A stretch of DNA of 64,000 nt from positions 1,364,001-1,428,000 of the forward strand of contig NZ_CP036246.2 in the NCBI RefSeq assembly GCF_004299785.2, read 5' to 3'. This stretch comes from Arcobacter porcinus (GTDB taxonomy: Bacteria > Campylobacterota > Campylobacteria > Campylobacterales > Arcobacteraceae). Both the position numbers and the translations under genes were made by a program. Below, piece by piece: positions 1-63,004 of the stretch. Position 1 is the stretch's first letter. Each line of letters starts with the position of its first letter. Under the pieces are notes generated by a model. The model was not told where the DNA came from and searched no databases. It worked only from the letters and a program-made list of their open reading frames with translations.

Positions 1-375
1 TTTTTTATAATCACCTAGTTCAATTTTTGGAGTTGTTGCAACTGAAATTTCAATTTCAATATCACCATTATCTTTTTTATCAAATTTAGTAATACTTGGT
101 TCTCCAACTAAATCACTATTTTTAACATCTAGCTCTTTTAATCCACCATTTAAAACTTCTCTAATAGCTTCACCCTGTGCATCTTCTTGTAACTTATCTG
201 CATATCTTTGTTTTACAACATTTACAGGAACTTTCCCTTTTCTAAAACCTTGAATATTCATTGTTTTTGCAGCTTCTTTTGCTACTTTATCAAGATTTTT
301 ATCTATTTGTTCTTTTTTTAATGTTGCAGTTATTTCGATATTTGCTTCATCTAATCTGTTTGTCTTAAATTCCAT
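1..375 (-). CDS. tig: Trigger factor, N-terminal part (runs off the window)
   Basis: The reverse strand from the ATG at 373-375 encodes about 125 residues before the window edge. They match the ribosome-binding N-terminal domain of trigger factor: the signature GFRKGKVP is readable near residue 45, followed by a typical alpha/beta domain. Trigger factor is the ribosome-bound chaperone and prolyl isomerase that receives nascent chains at the tunnel exit. A GGAG ribosome binding site lies 7 bases before the start. The PPIase and C-terminal domains are outside the window. Confidence 0.93.
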   Translation of the reverse strand, partial: MEFKTNRLDEANIEITATLKKEQIDKNLDKVAKEAAKTMNIQGFRKGKVPVNVVKQRYADKLQEDAQGEAIREVLNGGLKELDVKNSDLVGEPSITKFDKKDNGDIEIEISVATTPKIELGDYKK

Positions 376-39730: not shown

Positions 39731-41202
39731 CTCACACTCTCCTTTAATTTATTTAATATTTTAACCATCGCCAAAGTATCAAGTTTACAATACTCTAAAA
39801 GCGAATCTCTATATCTTTGTTTCAACTTTTCATCATCTATTTTTGAAAGATTTGCAAAAGCTTCCATAGCTTCACCACCATTGTGGATTAAATCTAACTC
39901 TTTATATGCATTTTCAAACTCTGGAACAAGTGATGGAAGTACATATTTGATAGAGTAGCTTCCTTTCATATTTGGATGATAGTAATCTTTATTTTGAAAA
40001 GGAATCATCAAATCTTTACAGTTATCATGAATAGCCATCAAACCATAAGAATATTGCTCAAACAAATTTGCCAATTTTCGTATTACACCTTTTTCAAATC
40101 CCATATTATATGCAACTACTGTTACATTTGAAGGAATATCTTCAACTAATCTTTTTGCAATTTCTTCTCTTGGATCAACTCCATCTTTGGCTAAAAACTC
40201 TTTGTGTTCAAGTCTTCCATCTTCATATTCAATATGAAGTGAGTATTGAAAAGGAATTTGAGAATATGGACTTACTCCTTTAAACTCTGGAATTGCTTGT
40301 TGGAATGTTTCAAAATCAAGATGATATATTGGGTAAGTAAGAGTATTTACAAACTCTTTTATGGCTTCTTTATTTATTATAATTCTATTTTCTAGTTCTG
40401 ATTCTATTTGTATTTGTTGAGATATTGAAAAAGAGTTTATATCTTTTATTTGAGAGAACTCTAAAATACCATTTTTATATAGTTCAAATTTTTTTGTACT
40501 TTGTAGCCGTGAGATATCAAATATTGAGTAGTTAGGAATATGCGACCAGCAATAATTTTTGGCATCACACTCATATGGGTCATTACAATGAGTTCCTATA
40601 TCAATATTTGGTTCAACATCTTTGGCTAATGTTTTTCTAAATATTTCAAGATTGTTTTTTATATTTGCTTGTAGCTCTTTTACTTCATAAGTTACATCAA
40701 CTATACTAAATAGTTGATTTATATCCAACTCTTCATCTCTTACATACTCATTATTTATATGAATTATATTTACCTTTTTTACATCATATCCTAAGCCATT
40801 TAAAACATAGTATTGAATACTGGCATCATGTAAGTATATATCTTTTACTTGTGTTGAGCTTTTAACTTCATTTATTATTACACTATTATCTTTGATATTT
40901 AAAATATCAATCATGATAAGTATTCCATCAAACTCAAATGTAGCTTCATAGATATTTTCATAGCCTTGTTTTATATACTCTTGTGTAAGATCGATTTTAT
41001 CTTGAAAAGTTGTATTAAGATAAGGTATTTCAACACCATTTGGAAAGAGTTTACAAGCCAAATCTCCTACTTCATTTCCATTTTGAAAAATAGCTTGTGC
41101 GGCTGCATTTGGTGGTGTTAAAACATCTTTATTGTGTTTTTTTAGCCAAAGAGATTTTTGGCATTGTATTGCTCTTGTATAGAGTGATTTTGATAGTTTC
41201 AT
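39727..41202 (-). CDS. DUF2779 protein: Cas4-like nuclease fused to DEDD exonuclease
   Basis: A 491-residue fusion. The N-terminal half looks like a RecB/Cas4-type nuclease: ILIMIDI (Asp99), INEVKSS (E112, K114), with Cys14 and a Cys206/Cys212/Cys218 set that could hold a 4Fe-4S cluster as in Cas4. The C-terminal half is a DnaQ-like 3'-5' exonuclease starting at HLDFETF (296-299) with later VAYNMGFEKGVI and a final Asp near LEYCKLDTLAMV. It is first in an operon with mcrB and mcrC (4-base overlap). A nuclease of this type coupled to McrBC is not part of the classical system. Confidence 0.85.
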   Translation of the reverse strand: MKLSKSLYTRAIQCQKSLWLKKHNKDVLTPPNAAAQAIFQNGNEVGDLACKLFPNGVEIPYLNTTFQDKIDLTQEYIKQGYENIYEATFEFDGILIMIDILNIKDNSVIINEVKSSTQVKDIYLHDASIQYYVLNGLGYDVKKVNIIHINNEYVRDEELDINQLFSIVDVTYEVKELQANIKNNLEIFRKTLAKDVEPNIDIGTHCNDPYECDAKNYCWSHIPNYSIFDISRLQSTKKFELYKNGILEFSQIKDINSFSISQQIQIESELENRIIINKEAIKEFVNTLTYPIYHLDFETFQQAIPEFKGVSPYSQIPFQYSLHIEYEDGRLEHKEFLAKDGVDPREEIAKRLVEDIPSNVTVVAYNMGFEKGVIRKLANLFEQYSYGLMAIHDNCKDLMIPFQNKDYYHPNMKGSYSIKYVLPSLVPEFENAYKELDLIHNGGEAMEAFANLSKIDDEKLKQRYRDSLLEYCKLDTLAMVKILNKLKESVR

Positions 41203-41306
41203 CTGTATATTTCCCCCATAAAAATTGGATTTTATTCTATCTATTATGATATTTATATTTTATTAATTTTTCTTATTTTTTTTGCCAAGATTCAATGCTT
41301 TTTATC

Positions 41307-41909
41307 TTATATAATTAGTGTTGCAAAGTTTTCTAAGACTTCATTGCTACTTGCAAAAATCTCGCCATTTGTGTCAAAGTAGTAGATTTTATCTTCTAAA
41401 TATACTTTATATGATTTAATCTTTCCCCAAATAAAAAGCTCATCTATATTCTCTTTATAGTGATTTTTTATAATATTTGAAACAATTTTTAGCTGTTCAT
41501 CTATGGTTTTAAAGTATAAATCTTTCTCTTTATTTAGTGATATTCTTCTTTTATTTTCTAATATTGCTAAAATATGTACTGCTTGGGTTGTTCTTTTGAA
41601 ATCTGTATTTACAAAGATATAGCTATTTTTAAATCTATCTTGCTCTTTTTTATATAAATTAATTTTTTCAAGTTCATTTGAAATTATCTTATCATCTATA
41701 TTTAATATTTTTAAAAGCTTAACAAAGAACTCTAAAGAGGAATTAACCAAATCATAGTAAGCACTTTCGCACCACTTTTGAATAGTTGAAGATTTTAGAA
41801 AATTATTTAGTGTTTTTTCAAAGTTTTTTTGGTTGTTATATCCTAACTCTTTTGCAAGGATTGTTTTATCTTTTGTGGCTAGTTGCTCTTTTATAGTTGC
41901 TAGTATCAT
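41307..41909 (-). CDS. Unknown 200-residue protein
   Basis: The N-terminal ~70 residues (TIKEQLATKDKTILAKELGYNNQKNFEKTLNNFLKSSTIQKW) read like an HTH-type helical domain, followed by a helical middle and a small beta-rich end (SYKVYLEDKIYYFDTNGEIFASSNEV). No family recognised. It is monocistronic, under promoter-operator 5. As a possible DNA-binding protein it is a second, weaker candidate regulator of the cassette. Confidence 0.55.
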   Translation of the reverse strand: MILATIKEQLATKDKTILAKELGYNNQKNFEKTLNNFLKSSTIQKWCESAYYDLVNSSLEFFVKLLKILNIDDKIISNELEKINLYKKEQDRFKNSYIFVNTDFKRTTQAVHILAILENKRRISLNKEKDLYFKTIDEQLKIVSNIIKNHYKENIDELFIWGKIKSYKVYLEDKIYYFDTNGEIFASSNEVLENFATLII

Positions 41910-41942
41910 CTTTTGCCCTTTATCATTTGAAATATTAAGGCA

Positions 41943-41974
41943 ATATTATCAAATGATTAGGACAGATTTTTGTC
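41943..41974 (-). promoter_or_regulatory. Cassette promoter-operator 5
   Basis: GACAGATTTTTGTC at 41961-41974, 12 bp from TAATAT (reverse strand, 41948-41943), upstream of the gene starting at 41909. It lies close to the end of the HNH gene. Confidence 0.83.
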
Positions 41975-41979
41975 TTGTT

Positions 41980-42576
41980 TTAATCAATTTTGTTTTCTAT
42001 TTTTCCACTATCTAAATCTTTTAAAAAATTTGTCATAGCTTCTGCAAAATATTTTTCATAATTTTTTTGTGAGATTAAATCGCTTTTTGCATTGTTACAC
42101 AAACTACAAGCCAATTTAGTATTCTCTGGACTATAAGGTTCTTTAGGTTTCAATCGTTCTATATGAAGTGTTGCATTAAACTTTGTAGAAGACAGCTTTT
42201 TGGATTTAAAAAGAGACTGTAAAGTTTCAGCAGTTACTCCACAATAGAAACATTTTTTATCCTGTTTTTTATACCAAATATAGAAATTTTCAAAATTTCC
42301 TCCAAAACCTTCTTTTCTTTCGTTCGTAGAATTAAATTTTTCCCTAATACTTTGAATATCTGTTCTATATTCTTTACACTCTTCATTTAACCTTTGCACA
42401 TCTTCGTATTTTTTCTCTGGAAAACGGCTTTTTAACACCTCTTCTATCTCTTTGAATTTTATTTGTTTAAACGAATAGCAATATAAAAAAATCATTTGCT
42501 CTTCTGTTAAGTCTTTATAATACTTAAACAGTATCTTTTTACTCTCAATTTCCTGTAATATCTCTTTTTCACTCAT
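41980..42576 (-). CDS. HNH endonuclease
   Basis: A 198-residue protein whose C-terminal half is a zinc-stapled HNH nuclease: CFYCGV and CSLCNNAK give the four Cys, HIERLKP the HNH histidine region, and SPENTKLAC the Asn. The N-terminal 90 residues are helical and charged. It has no nearby palindrome; its upstream region is the 44-bp repeat array, behind which a degenerate cassette promoter (43042-43073) points toward it. Confidence 0.85.
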   Translation of the reverse strand: MSEKEILQEIESKKILFKYYKDLTEEQMIFLYCYSFKQIKFKEIEEVLKSRFPEKKYEDVQRLNEECKEYRTDIQSIREKFNSTNERKEGFGGNFENFYIWYKKQDKKCFYCGVTAETLQSLFKSKKLSSTKFNATLHIERLKPKEPYSPENTKLACSLCNNAKSDLISQKNYEKYFAEAMTNFLKDLDSGKIENKID

Positions 42577-42669
42577 TTTTCAATCCTTTATGTAAATTTG
42601 TGTTAAATTCTAGCTATCAAGTTTTAAAATTTTCTGAAGGATATTTAAACTCTATTTCATTAAACATTA

Positions 42670-43010
42670 CTTAAATTAAGCCTGTATTTATTTTTGATAA
42701 GTTTTACTTCTTGCTTAAATTAAGTCTATATTTATTTTTTATAAGTATTAGCTTTTGCTTAAATTAAGTTGATATTTATCTTTCTATAAGCATAAAATAT
42801 TACTTAAATTAAGCCTATGTTTATTTTTTATAAGTTTTAGTTTTTGCTTAAATTAAGTCTATTTTTATTTTCTATAAGTATTAAATATCACTTAAATTAA
42901 GCTAGTATTTATATCTTTGAGCAATACATTTGTTAAGTAATTCTGCCTTAAATACGAGCTTTAATAAATTATATAGAAAAATATAATTATTAAATTTTAC
43001 TTAAATTAAG
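42670..43010. repeat. 44-bp degenerate tandem repeat array
   Basis: The palindromic core CTTAAATTAAG occurs at 42670, 42714, 42758, 42803, 42847, 42891 and 43000. The spacing is 44, 44, 45, 44 and 44 bp, then 109 bp. Between the cores lies a conserved AT-rich stretch resembling CTATATTTATTTTTTATAAG. Units differ by a few bases and alternate in the bases flanking the core. No coding frame runs through it. It occupies the space upstream of the HNH gene. Confidence 0.93.
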
Positions 43011-43041
43011 CCTATATTCATTTTTTATGAGTATTAGTTTT

Positions 43042-43073
43042 TAATTAAAAAATGTTTATAACAGGTTTTTGTC
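43042..43073 (-). promoter_or_regulatory. Degenerate cassette promoter-operator 6 in front of repeat array
   Basis: AACAGGTTTTTGTC at 43060-43073 keeps one perfect half-site; 12 bp later on the reverse strand is TAATTA. Correct geometry, weaker sequence. It would transcribe leftward through the 44-bp repeats toward the HNH gene. Confidence 0.5.
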
Positions 43074-43118
43074 TGGTTTATTTGTAAGTAATAGAAATTT
43101 TATATATTTAAGAGTGGT

Positions 43119-43442
43119 TTATTTATTGAGATAGTTTTTTAAAATATCATCTATTTCTTTATCACTAATATTAGCTTTTTCAGTTTTTGAGTAAATAGAG
43201 ATTAATACAATATTTTCTTCTATTTGATGAAATATAATTACTCTAAAACCACCACTTCTACCAGTCGGTATACTAGAGTTTTTTACTCTCTTTTTATATA
43301 TATTAGATCCGAGATTAACTCCAAGATTCCCATTTATTGTTATATCTTGGATAGAGTCCTTTAGGTCTTGTTTTAATAGTTTAAACTTTTTAGATAACTG
43401 CTTTGCTTCTCTTAAAAAATTGTCTGTATATAAAATATTCAA
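43119..43442 (-). CDS. RelE/HigB-like toxin
   Basis: A 107-residue RelE-fold protein: MNILYTDNFLREAKQLSKKFKLLKQDL, then a beta-sheet core with GRSGGFRVIIFHQIEENIVLISIYSKTEKANIS. Such toxins cleave mRNA on the ribosome or free. It overlaps the antitoxin gene by 4 bases. It does not carry the cassette palindrome and is instead controlled from the pair's own operator. Confidence 0.83.
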   Translation of the reverse strand: MNILYTDNFLREAKQLSKKFKLLKQDLKDSIQDITINGNLGVNLGSNIYKKRVKNSSIPTGRSGGFRVIIFHQIEENIVLISIYSKTEKANISDKEIDDILKNYLNK

Positions 43443-43720
43443 AGTTCATCCCATAATTTATCTATATGTTTAGTTTTTCCACTTTTCATATCGTCTAAAC
43501 CACTTTGAATAGATTGTAAAATCTTTTTTGTTTCAACTTCTTTTAAAACTTCTTTCATAGCTTCATATTCATCTTTAGAAATAAGTACTGCTTCTACTTT
43601 ATTATTTTTTAAAATTGCAAGTTTATCTACAGTTTTATCTTTTATTTGTGCTAAATAAGTACCAAATTTTTTAGCAAACTCTGATGAAGAGATAAGTTCA
43701 TTTGTAGAATATGTTACCAC
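43439..43720 (-). CDS. Antitoxin (Phd/YefM-like)
   Basis: A 93-residue antitoxin: N-terminal DNA-binding part (TYSTNELISSSEFAKKFGTYLAQIKDKTVDKLAILKNNKVEAVLISKDEYEAM) and a helical C-terminus that should wrap the toxin. It precedes the toxin with a 4-base overlap. A perfect palindrome 20 bp upstream of its start is the expected autoregulatory operator. Confidence 0.83.
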   Translation of the reverse strand: MVTYSTNELISSSEFAKKFGTYLAQIKDKTVDKLAILKNNKVEAVLISKDEYEAMKEVLKEVETKKILQSIQSGLDDMKSGKTKHIDKLWDEL

Positions 43721-43740
43721 AATATGCTCCTTTATATTAT

Positions 43741-43756
43741 CCGTAATATTTTACGG
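43741..43756. promoter_or_regulatory. Toxin-antitoxin operator
   Basis: CCGTAATATTTTACGG, perfect 6-bp arms around TATT, 20 bp upstream of the antitoxin start. It differs from the cassette palindrome. Confidence 0.75.
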
Positions 43757-43825
43757 CTATTGTAACATAATTTTATTGTATTAATTTATAAAAATATATT
43801 TAGCAAATTTATAGCTATCTTTTTA

Positions 43826-44755
43826 TCAACTACTTATATCTTCCAAATACTGCTTCACTCTCTCTTTTACTTCATTTGCCAAACTTTGTGGCTCTAACAC
43901 TTTTATATATGGAAGATAGTATAAAATCAGAGGAATAATTTCCATATTATTTGATATTTTTAGCTCTATTTCTATTGAGCCATCTTTATCTTCTCCAATT
44001 ATACTTTGACCTCTAAGAGGTTTTCTTTCAAAATATTTTCTAATTTGTTTATCTATAAACAATCTTACTCTAAATTGTTCTTCAAGATTAAACCAAACAC
44101 TATTTGCATATTTTAATCTATCTTCTACTAAAGAAGGAATCTCAAATTTTGTATTTAAAATTTCGATTTTATTTATAGATTTTAGGTGGTATTTTTTAAA
44201 TATCTCTTTATCTTTTTGTATATGAAATGCAAGTAAATACCAAAAGCCATCAAAGAATGCAAGTTTTAGTGGTTTTACATGAAAATTATATTTTTCATAA
44301 TCAAACTTTATCTCTTTTTTTTCTTTAATAGCAATTTCAATTTGCTCAAACAAAGCAACTGTTGTATCTGTAAGATATTCACCATTTATATTTGCAAATA
44401 TTGGATGATCTAATTGTTGAGTTATTTGAGATAAAAGCGAGTGAGCTTTTGAGTAAAATATACTCCCTGCACTTTTTGCCATCTCATCTAAAATACCAAG
44501 TATAAGCCTTTCATTTGTGTTTAAATCATCTTGTGCTAATTTTGGATCTATTTTCCAAGTCCTTCCCTCTTTTATAGCACCTAAATCACTTAATACTTCA
44601 TATAGATCTCTTTGAATTGTTTTTGTGCTAACATCTAGCTCTTTTGCTAATTCAGTAATTGTAAATCCGTGAACATTGTTTTTCAACATGGAGTAAATTT
44701 GATTTATTCTGTTGTATTTTGTATTATCGTTTTGTTTTTGAATAATTTTTGACAC
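43826..44755 (-). CDS. WYL-domain transcriptional regulator
   Basis: A 309-residue DeoR-type HTH plus WYL regulator. The N-terminus (KYNRINQIYSMLKNNVHGFTITELAKELDVSTKTIQRDLYEVLSDLG) is a winged helix-turn-helix. Residues ~140-210 form the WYL domain (FDGFWYLLAFHIQKDKEIFKKYHLKSI), followed by a C-terminal extension. WYL proteins sense nucleic acid or nucleotide ligands and repress phage-defence loci (BrxR and CapW are studied examples). It is the only obvious dedicated regulator in the cassette, so it is the leading candidate to bind the recurring GACA-N6-TGTC palindrome, which also occurs 65 bp upstream of its own start. Confidence 0.9.
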   Translation of the reverse strand: MSKIIQKQNDNTKYNRINQIYSMLKNNVHGFTITELAKELDVSTKTIQRDLYEVLSDLGAIKEGRTWKIDPKLAQDDLNTNERLILGILDEMAKSAGSIFYSKAHSLLSQITQQLDHPIFANINGEYLTDTTVALFEQIEIAIKEKKEIKFDYEKYNFHVKPLKLAFFDGFWYLLAFHIQKDKEIFKKYHLKSINKIEILNTKFEIPSLVEDRLKYANSVWFNLEEQFRVRLFIDKQIRKYFERKPLRGQSIIGEDKDGSIEIELKISNNMEIIPLILYYLPYIKVLEPQSLANEVKERVKQYLEDISS

Positions 44756-44767
44756 TATATTCCTTTG

Positions 44768-44790
44768 TGTAAAATAGTTTTTATTTTACA
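44768..44790. promoter_or_regulatory. Palindrome immediately upstream of the WYL gene
   Basis: Perfect 9-bp arms, TGTAAAATA and TATTTTACA, around GTTTT, 13 bp before the WYL start codon, where the ribosome binding site and 5' leader should lie. It could be an autoregulatory operator or an RNA hairpin limiting translation. Confidence 0.6.
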
Positions 44791-44816
44791 TAACATTTAT
44801 TAAATCCTTATATAAT

Positions 44817-45341
44817 TTAGACATTGATTTGTCCTAATTTTAAAATCTTTCTAATATAAATTTTAAAAGATAACCAAAAACTACTCTGTAACTCATTTTC
44901 GACAGATACATAAATATCAAAACTATTCTCCGAATAATATTTATAATAGTCTGTTGTACAAAGTATTTGAATACATCTAGCAAAAAAATAACTATCTTTT
45001 ATTACCTCTTTATCTTCTTTTTTTAATTTTGAGTAATCTTTACAATTCTCAACTATTTGAGATAATTGAGTAATTTTTTCATTTAATTCATCATTTAAAA
45101 AAGCTAAAGTACCAAGTACTAAAGATATATTATCTTGAAATGAATGATTATTTATATTTTTATCTATAATAACTGTTGAAAAATCAATATTTTCATATTT
45201 TATATTTATATAGAAATTTATATTTTTTATCTGTTTAAATATGCAAATATACTTTTTAAATGTTTTATTGTAAACTCTATTTTTAAGTCTAAAGAGATTT
45301 ACTATATTTTCCTCTTCTATTGAATCTAAAATATCTTCCAT
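44817..45341 (-). CDS. Unknown 174-residue protein
   Basis: Not recognised. Predominantly helical with several aromatic and Cys residues in the middle (SYFFARCIQILCTTDYYKYY), and a hydrophobic-basic end (FWLSFKIYIRKILKLGQINV). Its last codons contain the GACA-N6-TGTC palindrome (44820-44833) that precedes the WYL gene, so the coding end and an operator overlap. It is driven by promoter-operator 8. Confidence 0.6.
   Translation of the reverse strand: MEDILDSIEEENIVNLFRLKNRVYNKTFKKYICIFKQIKNINFYINIKYENIDFSTVIIDKNINNHSFQDNISLVLGTLAFLNDELNEKITQLSQIVENCKDYSKLKKEDKEVIKDSYFFARCIQILCTTDYYKYYSENSFDIYVSVENELQSSFWLSFKIYIRKILKLGQINV
44820..44833. promoter_or_regulatory. Palindrome 7 upstream of WYL gene, within a coding end
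   Basis: GACATTGATTTGTC has the same half-sites, but no -10 box lies at 12 bp in either direction. It overlaps the last codons (LGQINV-stop) of the gene at 44817. The altered phasing suggests a different mode of control, such as autoregulation. Confidence 0.6.
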
Positions 45342-45370
45342 AAAAAACTCTCCATATTTTTGTATAGAGA

Positions 45371-45402
45371 AGTTTATATTTTTATATGGACATATTATTG
45401 TC
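45371..45402 (-). promoter_or_regulatory. Cassette promoter-operator 8
   Basis: GACATATTATTGTC at 45389-45402, 12 bp from TAAACT (reverse strand, 45376-45371), upstream of the gene starting at 45341. Confidence 0.78.
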
Positions 45403-45416
45403 TATTTTAATTAATT

Positions 45417-45887
45417 CTAATCCGCAAGTTCATCATCCCACATCTGTTTTACTTCATTATAGTTTTTTAATGCAATTTCATAACTAATAGACCAAAAAAC
45501 TGCATCTTTTGAAAGTGGATTACCTAATTTATCTTCATACTTTTTACAAATTGCATTATAAACTTCATCATCTTTTTCACAATCAATTGCAATAGTTCCC
45601 AAATATGGATAAATCAAATAACCAGGACTCACCATATCAAAGACCTCATGAATCTGCGTATTAGGAAATTTATCTTTCATAAAATTTATAAACTCATCTC
45701 TAGCTATATTGTTTACACACTTTTCATTTAAATATCCAAATATTCCATATTCTGCATTTTCTTCAGAATTTGGTTCATTTTTAAAAGCATATAAGTCATT
45801 ATAAACTGTGTTAAAAACCATAAAATAAGTTTCTCTTTTCCTTATAGTTGCTACATATTCAGTTAATGTTTTTAATAATCTTGGCAT
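45417..45887 (-). CDS. Unknown 156-residue protein, partner of SLOG protein
   Basis: A soluble protein with no family I can name. The centre contains NTQIHEVFDMVSPGYLIYPYLGTIAIDCEKDDEVYNAICKKYED, beta-alpha in character, and the end is helical and acidic. It follows the SLOG gene by 28 bp in the same direction and has no promoter palindrome of its own, so the two are probably one operon. Confidence 0.6.
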   Translation of the reverse strand: MPRLLKTLTEYVATIRKRETYFMVFNTVYNDLYAFKNEPNSEENAEYGIFGYLNEKCVNNIARDEFINFMKDKFPNTQIHEVFDMVSPGYLIYPYLGTIAIDCEKDDEVYNAICKKYEDKLGNPLSKDAVFWSISYEIALKNYNEVKQMWDDELAD

Positions 45888-57127: not shown

Positions 57128-57691
57128 TTAAATTAGTACTTGATTTTCTTTAGTTTGAAGGGACAGTTCAATGGACCTTTTTTTTTGTTTATCTTTAATT
57201 ACTGTATGATTCAAAAGTTTTTCATTTAGCTCATCCCATTTTTCTTTATCTATCTCTATATCTTGTCGGACATGTCTTGTTTTTGTCATGAAAATGTCAG
57301 GACAATCAGAGGACAATGTCTTTTTTCTATTTCGATATTCTCTCTTTTTTTCAGCCCATGAAGTTTCAGCACCTACCATATTTTGGACTTCTAGCATATA
57401 TAGAGTGCCATCTTCCCACTTTTCCATAAGTCCAAGTGATATAAACGTGTTGATTGCTGTGTTTACAGTGTCTATATTGCAGTTTGTAATAGTAGCGAGC
57501 ATTTCAAGATTGAAAGGTATTGCATCCCTAAATCTCAACGTTCCTTCCGTTTTGAGACTTTTGAGTAATAATTTCAAATAAAAATTAATGTAATCTTTAC
57601 CGTTTTTTTGCGATTCGATTATTTTAATCTCATCCCGTTCGAAAAAATCATCTTTGAGTTTTAGCCAATAGTATTTTTTATTTTGAGACAT
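57128..57691 (-). CDS. Phage replisome organiser-like protein
   Basis: A 187-residue protein whose first ~120 residues match the phage replisome organiser N-terminal type: KKYYWLKLKDDFFERDEIKIIESQKNGKDYINFYLKLLLKSLKTEGTLRF...NTFISLGLMEKWEDGTLYM, a winged-helix pattern. Such proteins open a phage or plasmid origin and help load the replicative helicase. The basic C-terminus after position 120 (KKREYRNRKKT) may bind DNA. It overlaps the upstream excisionase-like gene by 14 bp. It suggests that this module once replicated on its own. Confidence 0.8.
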   Translation of the reverse strand: MSQNKKYYWLKLKDDFFERDEIKIIESQKNGKDYINFYLKLLLKSLKTEGTLRFRDAIPFNLEMLATITNCNIDTVNTAINTFISLGLMEKWEDGTLYMLEVQNMVGAETSWAEKKREYRNRKKTLSSDCPDIFMTKTRHVRQDIEIDKEKWDELNEKLLNHTVIKDKQKKRSIELSLQTKENQVLI

Positions 57692-59989: not shown

Positions 59990-62900
59990 TTAGTAAAGTT
60001 TGTTTAATTTTATATCATTACCAATATTTTGAATAACTGGAAATTGTTTTTCATTTGAATCTAAATTTCTAAGTTTATCAGATAATTCAATAACAGAAAT
60101 AAATCCATCTTTATTTTTATCTGTTTCTTTATTTTTCATACTATCCAATATATGATATGTAAAATTACTATGCTTATATTCATTGTTTTCGAAAGCATAT
60201 GTACCGCTTGTACTTGCAGAAAGTAAATGTATCCCTGAACTTCTTGCTAAAACAGAAGCTCTTGAATCATATACTGCAGATGCAATATCATTTGCACTTC
60301 CAGATTGGCATGCATCAATAATAAATATTTGATTTAATGATTTTAGTTCTGATGATTTTTTAAAAATATCATTAAACTCTATTAAATTTGTTAATTGAGC
60401 ATTATTTGATGGTAATAAATAAAACTTACTATTTGCACTTATTCCATGAGTAGAAATATAAAATAAAATTGTATCTTCAAGTGATGCTTTTTTACTTATA
60501 GTTTCAAATGCTGACTCAATATTGTCTTTAGTAACTTGATTATCTATTAAAGAAATGATTTCAATATCATCAAATATTTTTTCTCTTGATTTTGATGCAA
60601 TATCAGATATAGATTTTGCATCATTAACCGCATATTTAAGATTTTGTAAAGTATTACCATAGTTAGACTCAAAGTTATTTACTCCTGCAATTATTGCATA
60701 AAGTTTTGGTTTTCTTTCTGGAATATTAGCATTAATATTAACTGTAGATCTAAAACTTGTTATAGTATTTGTTCCATTAAATGCTTCAATACTTATTTGG
60801 TTAAGTCCATTTTTTAAAGGTACATTAATCTCATAATTCCCTGAACTATTAACAATTAAATCATTCTCAAATGAATTTGTAATTTGCTCATCTATCTTTA
60901 AAGCTTCACCATTAATAGCTTTCGACAATGCTACTTGTTGATATTCACTAAGTTTTTTTTCTTGTTCTTGTTCTTCTATTTTTGTATCAACATTAGCAAT
61001 TACTTTATTTATTTTAGAATCACCAATAGTTTTAATAAGTTTTCCTTCTTGATATACTCTAATAGTACCAATACCACCTCCTATATTATTTACAGTGAAA
61101 GAAACTTTAATATTTTTTTTATCAGTTCTTTTAAGTTCACTTTCATTATTTATAACAACTTCAGGAGGTGGATTTTGCAATGCATCATTTGCAGTTAACC
61201 CATTTGTGTAAGAGTTTATATCAATACCCTTTAATTTTAGTTTTACTAAATCAGGTCTAAAAAATACATCATAAAATTTTTCTACATTAAATAATTTTGC
61301 TTCTTGATTCATATTTTGATTCATATGCCAAGCTACATAGTCTAATGCTTGAATAGATGAAACAGTAAAATATCCTTCTTCTGTCCATAATACATAATTA
61401 TTATGATCAATTACCAATGAAACTATTAAACTATTTTTTTCAATATCAATCATTTTTATTAAATTATTAGTATCTATTGTAATTAGATATTTTCCATCAC
61501 TATACAATGACTTTATTTGTTGTGAATTAAAATTAAGAGTTTTAAGTTTTTTACCATTTAAATCATACAATTCTATTAATCCACTTTTTAAAGCCACTAA
61601 TATATTTCCATTTAAAAAACCATATTGTGAAAATTTTTCAGTAACAATTGAATTTTCTAATTTAAAATTATCATATATAAAAATTTCATTATCTGTTTCA
61701 ATATCACTATATATATTTCCTTTTGTAGCATTAGATAATAAAGCTTTTTTATATTTATCAATTATTTCATTATTAGTTTCATTACTAAGTAAATACCCAG
61801 GATTTAAACTATGTAATATTTCTATCGAATTATCTTGATTTGATAAAGGTTTAAGTTGAAGATTTAGGATTTTTTTTATTTGTTCAAGCATAAAATTATG
61901 AGAATTAACTAAATTGGGTTCATTGATTGAAAATATTTCATCATTTTGATTTTGTAAATAAATATTTTTTTGATTACCTCGAATATTTTTTATATAACTA
62001 TTATTATTTTTAACAACACTAAGTTTTTGTAAATCTGATTCTAAAAATAAAATATCTGAACCATTTACTATTAAATACAAATTTTCATCTATATTACTAA
62101 TATCATTTATCTGATACGATTTCTCAGATGAAGAAATTGCAACTGTAGTTGCCCAATTTTTTTTATATTTGAAAATATCACTTTTATCTGTTAATTTAAA
62201 GTGCTTATCTTTTTTTGTAATCAAATTATATGAATCTATTCTCATATCAAAATCAATAATAGTTAATGATGAATTAGGGAAATTACCTAAAACAAATATT
62301 TTATTATTAGATATTACTATTTTTTCTGGTCTATCAAAAATTTTAACTTGTTTTTCTATTTCTTGTGTATCCAAATTAATTAATACTATTTCAGACTCTG
62401 CAGTTGATAATACGCAAAACTGTTTATTTTCATTTTCAAATACTTGTGCAGAAAGTATGGATGTATCAAAAGATATTGTCTTTAAATTTTCAAATGATTG
62501 ATTTTTCCAAATAGAAACACTATTTTGAGTTGCTGAAACAAGATATAAATTATTTTTAGAAAACTGAACATAATTTACTGGATCAACTGAAGTTGAAATA
62601 GTATTTATTATTTTCTCAGTATTGTAATTATAAATTCTTATATTCCCTGATTTACCATTATGTGTACTAAAAATACCACTTGATACTAAATATTTTTTTT
62701 GAGTATCTAATGTTACATCAAAAACATTTCCTAAGACTCCTTCATTGATATAACCTGAAAATATTTTATAATTATTTGGATTTGAAACATTTTTTACAAT
62801 TATATTTTTTTTATCAGCACTAACTAATATTAAATTATCATTTACTACTTTATAATTACTTACTACATTATTCTGAATATTTGTAGGTTTTAAATAAAAA

Positions 62901-63004
62901 ATTTTATCCTTTTCAGATAAAGTCTCATTTTTCAATGTGCTAACATTAGAAACACATCCAACGAAAAATATACCTACAAATATGAATAATATAGTCTTAA
63001 TCAT
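59990..63004 (-). CDS. Lipoprotein caspase homologue with beta-propeller
   Basis: A 1004-residue C14 peptidase. The signal MIKTILFIFVGIFFVGCVSN ends in lipobox VGC, giving a lipid-anchored periplasmic protein. Residues ~30-560 hold WD40/beta-propeller-like repeats (many LVSADKKN, YLVSATQNSVSIWKN units). The caspase domain starts near 765 (YAIIAGVNNFE) with catalytic His853 (ISTHGIS) and Cys899 (IIDACQSG). DKNKDGFISVIE (962-973) fits the 12-residue EF-hand calcium loop. Periplasmic anchoring, propeller and calcium loop suggest a Ca-activated protease with a sensing platform; that is inference. It is coupled to the gene upstream by a 1-base overlap. Confidence 0.9.
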   Translation of the reverse strand: MIKTILFIFVGIFFVGCVSNVSTLKNETLSEKDKIFYLKPTNIQNNVVSNYKVVNDNLILVSADKKNIIVKNVSNPNNYKIFSGYINEGVLGNVFDVTLDTQKKYLVSSGIFSTHNGKSGNIRIYNYNTEKIINTISTSVDPVNYVQFSKNNLYLVSATQNSVSIWKNQSFENLKTISFDTSILSAQVFENENKQFCVLSTAESEIVLINLDTQEIEKQVKIFDRPEKIVISNNKIFVLGNFPNSSLTIIDFDMRIDSYNLITKKDKHFKLTDKSDIFKYKKNWATTVAISSSEKSYQINDISNIDENLYLIVNGSDILFLESDLQKLSVVKNNNSYIKNIRGNQKNIYLQNQNDEIFSINEPNLVNSHNFMLEQIKKILNLQLKPLSNQDNSIEILHSLNPGYLLSNETNNEIIDKYKKALLSNATKGNIYSDIETDNEIFIYDNFKLENSIVTEKFSQYGFLNGNILVALKSGLIELYDLNGKKLKTLNFNSQQIKSLYSDGKYLITIDTNNLIKMIDIEKNSLIVSLVIDHNNYVLWTEEGYFTVSSIQALDYVAWHMNQNMNQEAKLFNVEKFYDVFFRPDLVKLKLKGIDINSYTNGLTANDALQNPPPEVVINNESELKRTDKKNIKVSFTVNNIGGGIGTIRVYQEGKLIKTIGDSKINKVIANVDTKIEEQEQEKKLSEYQQVALSKAINGEALKIDEQITNSFENDLIVNSSGNYEINVPLKNGLNQISIEAFNGTNTITSFRSTVNINANIPERKPKLYAIIAGVNNFESNYGNTLQNLKYAVNDAKSISDIASKSREKIFDDIEIISLIDNQVTKDNIESAFETISKKASLEDTILFYISTHGISANSKFYLLPSNNAQLTNLIEFNDIFKKSSELKSLNQIFIIDACQSGSANDIASAVYDSRASVLARSSGIHLLSASTSGTYAFENNEYKHSNFTYHILDSMKNKETDKNKDGFISVIELSDKLRNLDSNEKQFPVIQNIGNDIKLNKLY

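What the first reader, a model, noticed from the sequence alone, without database searches (positions are those of the whole stretch)
42576..43073. 44-bp repeat array between a cassette-type promoter and an HNH nuclease gene
Seven CTTAAATTAAG cores spaced 44-45 bp apart (one gap of 109) fill the space upstream of the HNH gene. Behind them, at the correct 12-bp spacing, is a half-degenerate copy of the shared promoter pointing through the array. Transcription would make a repeat RNA, or a roughly 460-nt leader, preceding the nuclease mRNA. Alternatively the palindromic cores are multiple binding sites that silence the gene. In every other unit the operator is within 60 bp of the start, so the array looks inserted or expanded.
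Basis: partly seen in the sequence, partly recalled or inferred. Interest (0 to 1): 0.8.

Follow-up and report, generated by a model that had tools for sequence, protein, structure and literature searches.

The report
Seven ribosomal-promoter elements before nuclease gene
In front of a DNA-cutting enzyme gene in a bacterial defence island lie seven evenly spaced copies of a short DNA element that related bacteria carry in the promoter of a ribosomal protein gene, so the nuclease may be wired to the cell's growth control.

Summary
The array is real: seven exact CTTAAATTAAG cores (steps 44, 44, 45, 44, 44, 109 bp) inside a diverged 44-bp tandem repeat. The 2.02-Mb genome has only three more copies, and 397 other order genomes searched have no paired cores. 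New here: the core is not private to the array. Read toward the HNH gene (CTTAATTTAAG) it is a conserved promoter element of rplM (ribosomal protein L13): exact in 30 of 30 genus genomes read; exact or one mismatch in 23 of 27 rplM promoters read outside the genus. There it usually sits 28 bp upstream of the -10, matching the published HsrA/HP1043 geometry (TTTAAG-N5-TTTAAG). In the array the second half-site (TAA at +13) is kept in 6 of 7 units, only in the HNH direction, against 1 of 114 elsewhere in the window. The genome encodes an HsrA/CosR ortholog. The HNH protein is PacI-like. Best reading: a homotypic cluster of DNA sites for the rplM-element factor, probably that ortholog, upstream of the nuclease promoter. 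Binding, sign of control and function are untested. A repeat RNA has little support. The WYL-type operator behind the array is degenerate. Main rival: sites of the PacI-like protein itself.

The parts
42659..42912 (-). 44-bp tandem repeat, about 5.8 copies by TRF, six of the seven cores
   Evidence: TRF
42670..42680 (-). core 1, nearest HNH: CTTAATTTAAG-TAATG-TTTAAT; starts 104 bp before the HNH start codon
42714..42724 (-). core 2: CTTAATTTAAG-CAAGA-AGTAAA
42758..42768 (-). core 3: CTTAATTTAAG-CAAAA-GCTAAT
42803..42813 (-). core 4: CTTAATTTAAG-TAATA-TTTTAT (the one unit without TAA at +13)
42847..42857 (-). core 5: CTTAATTTAAG-CAAAA-ACTAAA
42891..42901 (-). core 6: CTTAATTTAAG-TGATA-TTTAAT
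43000..43010 (-). core 7: CTTAATTTAAG-TAAAA-TTTAAT, with TATAAT at 42973-42968, 32 bp after TTTAAG
42607..42612 (-). TAGAAT, best -10-like hexamer close to HNH (by eye); a weaker TTAAAT lies at 42643-42648, 27 bp after core 1's TTTAAG. No consensus sigma-70 promoter toward HNH was found between 42577 and 43118 by the scan
43060..43074 (-). degenerate copy of the island's GACA-N6-TGTC operator
41980..42576 (-). PacI-like HNH nuclease, 198 aa, N-terminal helical part resembling HTH domains
43826..44755 (-). WYL-domain regulator with HTH, presumed owner of the GACA-N6-TGTC operators (inference)

Best explanation
The array is a homotypic cluster of seven DNA-binding sites for the factor that acts at the rplM promoter across the order; the best candidate is the HsrA/CosR (HP1043) ortholog. 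Each site is CTTAATTTAAG-N5-nnTAA (TAA in 6 of 7). All seven face the PacI-like HNH gene and five of the six steps are about four helical turns. I think the cluster grew by tandem duplication from one site upstream of the HNH promoter and makes transcription of the nuclease follow that regulator through cooperative loading. Shown by sequence: the array, identity of its core with the rplM element, orientation, second half-site, invariance of the cores, presence of the regulator gene. Inferred: that the ortholog binds here, that it controls HNH, and the sign of control; activation is a little likelier than silencing because HP1043 activates its model target.
For: Core exact upstream of rplM in 30 of 30 genus genomes read and exact in 14, one mismatch in 9 of 27 rplM promoters read outside the genus; first-order Markov resampling gives 0.13% exact and 2.5% at most one mismatch. 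-10 starts 28 bp after TTTAAG in 26 of 30 genus rplM promoters, close to published HP1043 sites. TAA at +13..15 after TTTAAG: array 6 of 7 toward HNH and 0 of 7 the other way, rplM 20 of 30, window background 1 of 114. 0 of 77 changes in cores against 48 of 238 elsewhere. HsrA/CosR ortholog with nearly identical DNA-binding domain, with TTTAAG-N5-TTTAAA in its own leader. ATTAAG at -59 to -64 in 17 of 17 cytochrome c553 promoters used, with a -10-like hexamer (4 or 5 of 6) 27-28 bp on in 15 of the 15 where the script scored that site; hp1227, whose promoter is the model HP1043 target, is a cytochrome c553 gene (recalled).
Against: No unit has a good -10 at 28 bp, and core 1 is 104 bp from the start codon against 68-70 bp at rplM, so the classical activator position is not kept; the promoter scan finds no sigma-70 promoter toward HNH between 42577 and 43118. 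Own-genome rplM has its best -10 at 26 bp and second half-site TATAAG. Strict TTTAA second half-sites occur in only 3 of 7 units. Perfect TTTAAG-N5-TTTAAG is not enriched in the genome (1; controls 1 and 3). Published C. jejuni CosR boxes look different. The array is known from one genome, so there is no between-species conservation of it. Units share descent, so the 6 of 7 are not independent.
Confidence: 0.55

Rival explanations
1. The cores are binding sites of the adjacent PacI-like HNH protein itself, through its HTH and HNH parts: an autoregulatory operator or a decoy that holds the nuclease.
For: HNH is PacI-like by sequence and predicted fold; PacI cuts TTAAT|TAA and the core holds TTAA-W-TTAA; adjacency.
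Against: None of 18 loci of HNH relatives has an array or an exact core in the upstream DNA read. The core stays exact at rplM in many genomes where no HNH relative was found, and in three others with one (G063, G079, G090). TTAATTAA is not avoided in the window (7 against 8.0 expected). TAA at +13 has no place in this reading.
Confidence: 0.15
2. Neutral minisatellite: a promoter-like stretch that expanded by slippage and has no function of its own.
For: Found in one genome only; tandem structure with 44, 89 and 133-bp periods.
Against: 0 of 77 changes in cores against 20% elsewhere in the units (P about 3e-8 if cells were independent; 2.9e-4 by shuffling columns); the second half-site is kept.
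Confidence: 0.12
3. Titration array: the sites bind the rplM-element factor to lower its free level, without controlling HNH.
For: Seven of the ten exact genome copies of the core are here; no promoter geometry in the units.
Against: Seven sites are few against an abundant global regulator (inference); orientation of all half-sites toward HNH is not needed for titration.
Confidence: 0.08
4. Repeat RNA or long leader transcribed from the degenerate operator promoter (43060-43074) or from TATAAT at 42968-42973.
For: Operator remnant with TTTAAT at 10 bp; perfect TATAAT; slight fold excess (z -2.27 and -2.00).
Against: No Rfam match in the array, very AT-rich weak hairpins, core shared with promoters; no terminator-like site found between 41900 and 43500.
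Confidence: 0.08

Closest known systems
HP1043/HsrA binding sites of Helicobacter pylori (PMC5253667, PMC8345958; passages read)
   Same: TTTAAG, 5-bp spacer, weaker second half; DNA-binding domain of the ortholog nearly identical; translation genes among targets; rpoD is a published target with two sites.
   Different: Seven tandem sites, an extra 5' CTTAA making a palindrome, sites far from the start and without a -10 at the usual distance; binding untested here.
rplM promoter element seen in this work (order-wide)
   Same: Exact core, same orientation, TAA at +13.
   Different: Single copy at rplM in nearly all promoters read (two in L038), with a -10 at 28 bp.
PacI (TTAAT|TAA) HNH restriction enzyme
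   Same: HNH domain by sequence and predicted fold.
   Different: N-terminal part differs; cores are TTAA-W-TTAA inside an 11-mer, not TTAATTAA.
WYL/BrxR-controlled defence islands (PMC9122601; passages read)
   Same: WYL regulator gene in a defence island with inverted-repeat operators.
   Different: Ten operators here against the two R-boxes described in the passages read; the array core itself is not like the operator.

Membership tests
HsrA/HP1043-type binding site | First half-site TTTAAG | tested here: met
   7 of 7 units
HsrA/HP1043-type binding site | Second half-site tTTAAg after 5 bp | tested here: inconclusive
   TTTAAT in 3 of 7; TAA part in 6 of 7; genus rplM promoters vary the same way
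HsrA/HP1043-type binding site | Overlaps a promoter, about 28-30 bp upstream of the -10 | tested here: not met
   No unit has a hexamer of 5 or 6 matches at 26-30 bp toward HNH; core 7 has TATAAT at 32. Hence 'works like', not 'is' such a promoter site
HsrA/HP1043-type binding site | Cognate regulator encoded | tested here: met
   Ortholog gene at about 1691.4-1692.1 kb
HsrA/HP1043-type binding site | Protein binds the DNA | not testable with these tools
   Needs EMSA or ChIP
CRISPR array | Identical repeats with unique spacers | tested here: not met
   The whole 44-bp unit is a diverged repeat; only 11 bp are invariant as a run
Structured RNA family | Match to a known family | tested here: not met
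   Nothing in the array up to E 5 in Rfam 15, 41000-45500
PacI recognition site | TTAATTAA | tested here: not met
   The cores are TTAAWTTAA; the one TTAATTAA in 42577-43118 is not in a core
Plasmid iteron or centromere | Adjacent replication or partition gene | tested here: inconclusive
   None among the 10 neighbours; the nearest seen is a phage replisome organiser at 57128, 14 kb away; not every window ORF was scanned

The most novel reading that the evidence does not exclude
The array is a sensor of the host's growth programme. The essential ribosomal-promoter regulator occupies seven phased sites in front of a PacI-like defence nuclease; when a phage blocks translation or takes over transcription, the change in that regulator's activity switches the nuclease on. 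HP1043 targets do rise on translational arrest in H. pylori (passages).
Probability: 0.12. Interest if true: 0.8.

Novelty: new variant of a known kind. Interest (0 to 1): 0.5.

Why it matters
It would tie an accessory defence nuclease to a core element that marks ribosomal protein transcription across a bacterial order, and it gives an easily tested candidate site for the HsrA/CosR ortholog of this genus. I found no report of this rplM element in the searches made (listings and passages only; the library is open-licence papers). If the array controls the nuclease, defence expression would be coupled to the growth regulator rather than only to a dedicated defence regulator such as the island's WYL protein.

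Tried and rejected
Relatives of the array in viruses: three viral contigs matched. L013 and L014 hold the match inside coding repeats, and L012 looks the same by eye (ORFs listed for L013 only). A scan of about 85,000 species gave 25 contigs with paired cores; I looked at all 25. They differ from our unit outside the core. Two are true tandem repeats of 44-45 bp with the same core and otherwise different units: L032, a Deltaproteobacteria MAG (5.5 copies, 94% alike), and L035, a Methanobrevibacter (4 copies, 90%); I take them as chance, but they show that a 44-bp repeat with this core can arise elsewhere. The one Campylobacterota contig by title, L038, is an rplM promoter; it was found by its cores, so it is left out of the rplM count. 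Plasmid DNA search with the intergenic region: no match.

Exact core at 404315 near cytochrome c553: first taken as support, dropped because it is not conserved in the genus. Exact core at 1843992: 3' end of a coding frame that I read as truD, taken as chance. CemR was confused with CosR in one note; it is the HP1021 relative and is not used. The control set of c553 promoters used 17 of the 30 loci returned (the 17 best orthologs); the other 13 were dropped before the count.

Array as seven tandem rplM-type promoters: rejected. HNH restricting TTAATTAA: no avoidance in the window. Most BLAST hits of the region in congeners are short AT-rich matches; the two checked at query 1005-1056 (G009, G029) are rplM promoters, and those in G008, G026, G028 and G030 fall at the rplM coordinates too. 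Fold matches of the HNH N-terminus (Fur-type and sigma region 4, Z 4-5.5) are only suggestive.

Full report
OBSERVATION. Tandem Repeats Finder sees the 44-bp unit as a diverged repeat. In an alignment of the seven units the 11 core columns have no change in 77 cells; the other columns together have 48 of 238. The 11-mer occurs 10 times in the 2,018,219-bp genome, 7 of them here. Pairs of CTTAAATTAAG were sought in 31 genus genomes and pairs of CTTAAWTTAAG, gap 24-54, in 398 order genomes drawn from a larger group: only the window's own genome has them.

WHAT THE CORE IS. A profile of the unit, run over the 31 genus genomes, gave single hits that were not random: 5 of the 9 hits outside the own genome at E < 0.01 lie just upstream of the gene for ribosomal protein L13, rplM. 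I then fetched rplM in the genus (31 of 31 genomes hit; loci returned for 30). CTTAATTTAAG is exact in 30 of 30, starting 68-70 bp before the start codon; the window's genome has it at 156651-156661. In a draw of 60 order genomes rplM was found in 59; the 30 best-scoring loci were returned, 27 of them outside the genus. In these 27 the best match to CTTAAWTTAAG within 150 bp is exact in 14, one mismatch in 9, two in 2, three in 2; Markov-resampled sequences give 0.13% exact and 2.5% with at most one. Both central bases occur. In 17 cytochrome c553 promoters as control: 1 exact (the own genome), 3 with two mismatches, 12 with three, 1 with four. The Helicobacteraceae contig L038, found by its paired cores and so not counted, is also rplM, with two cores 45 bp apart.

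WHICH FACTOR. In 26 of 30 genus rplM promoters the best -10 hexamer starts 28 bp after TTTAAG; it is 29 in two and 26 in two, one of them the own genome. Six of 30 carry exact TTTAAG-N5-TTTAAG. Published HP1043/HsrA sites are TTTAAG-5bp-TTTAAG with a weaker second half, at -42 to -26 in the model promoter; about 30% of genes tied to its promoter sites serve translation (passages). L13 itself is not named in the passages seen, and the word rplM does not occur in that paper. The own genome has 14 OmpR-type DNA-binding domains. One, at about 1691.4 kb, matches PDB 8uvx (2.5e-115) and 2hqr (5.5e-84) best, with a nearly identical DNA-binding domain; that these are CosR and HP1043 is recalled, the PDB names are generic. 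Its leader holds TTTAAG-N5-TTTAAA. Against this: perfect TTTAAG-N5-TTTAAG is not enriched in the genome (1; controls 1 and 3), the rplM element has an extra 5' CTTAA, and published C. jejuni CosR boxes look different. So the factor is a good candidate, not shown.

HOW THE ARRAY IS BUILT. Read toward HNH, TAA stands at +13..15 after TTTAAG, inside the second half-site, in 6 of 7 units; in 20 of 30 genus rplM promoters; in 1 of 114 [AT]TTAAG elsewhere in the window; and in 0 of 7 units read the other way. The units share descent, so the 6 are not independent events. Steps are about 4 turns (44-45 bp) and about 10 turns (109 bp). On the plus strand a weaker half-site lies 21 bp from the core's TTAAG: TATAAG in 3 of 7, GATAAG and TATGAG once each, once shifted by a base, absent in one. 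No unit has a good -10 at 26-30 bp toward HNH, so these are not seven rplM-type promoters. Near HNH the best -10-like hexamer is TAGAAT at 42607-42612; core 7 has TATAAT 32 bp on. The sigma-70 scan found no promoter toward HNH in the array region.

THE NUCLEASE. HNH is PacI-like by sequence (phmmer 4.5e-9; profile 9.9e-17) and predicted fold (pLDDT 87.4; Foldseek E 1.2e-3; Z 8.2, rmsd 3.2, 113 residues). Residues from about 8-15 to 75-80 align to Fur-type and sigma region 4 domains at Z 4-5.5, only suggestive. Relatives at E 1e-6 occur in 18 of 398 order genomes including the own. None of the 18 other loci has a tandem array or an exact core upstream; three have one core with one mismatch 390-890 bp away; one locus had only 55 bp to read. 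Since PacI cuts TTAAT|TAA, the cores could be sites of the HNH protein itself: the main rival. It is weakened because the core stays at rplM in genomes where no HNH relative was found and in three others with one.

THE ISLAND. Of 22 genes tested, 11 carry GACA-N6-TGTC at -57 to -79, the WYL regulator's own gene among them; there are ten operators, one shared by a divergent pair. The best -10 stands at 12 bp in 8 of the 11, with 5 or 6 matches in 7. WYL repressors that bind inverted repeats in defence islands are known (passages); that the WYL protein here owns these operators is inference. The copy at 43060-43074 is degenerate. The toxin-antitoxin module beside it has relatives in two congeners whose similarity ends at 43118, at the end of the toxin ORF, so the array is not part of that module.

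CONCLUSION. I commit to a homotypic cluster of sites for the rplM-element factor: about 0.75 that the cores are such sites, about 0.6 that the factor is the HsrA/CosR ortholog, about 0.5 that they control HNH. The sign of control is open. The checking round changed counts (27 instead of 28 promoters outside the genus, ten operators, 5 of 9 profile hits) but not these odds.

Noticed in passing
window 31076-51904: A WYL-regulator island: ten GACA-N6-TGTC operators in front of 11 of 22 genes tested, most with a -10 at 12 bp, including the WYL gene itself. Some HNH relatives elsewhere have the same kind of operator at about -60 (L022, L025, L029 by script, L030 by eye).
   Followed up: partly
L016, L017, L019, L020, L022, L024-L026, L029, L030; L190: HNH relatives sit beside agmatine-deiminase-like frames in 10 of 18 loci (short motifs, recalled) and on a Flammeovirga plasmid (annotated): a possible two-gene unit. 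No deiminase was seen next to the window's HNH; the array lies where such a gene would stand.
   Followed up: partly
L034, L039, L043, L044, L047, L049, L050, L052: Eight Clostridia-type contigs carry a pair of CTTAAATTAAG 52 bp apart in front of a frame that I read by eye as starting about MRNKNNKHLGIE: apparently an unrelated conserved operator.
   Followed up: no
L032 1-241 and L035 6325-6505: Unrelated 44-bp and 45-bp tandem repeats with the same 11-bp core in a Deltaproteobacteria MAG and a Methanobrevibacter.
   Followed up: partly
L103 2-751: A second WYL-like regulator frame lies just downstream of rplM-rpsI in the window's own genome (read by eye from the translation).
   Followed up: no
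window 59990-63004: A 1004-aa protein with a C-terminal caspase-like (Peptidase_C14) domain and WD40-type repeats.
   Followed up: no
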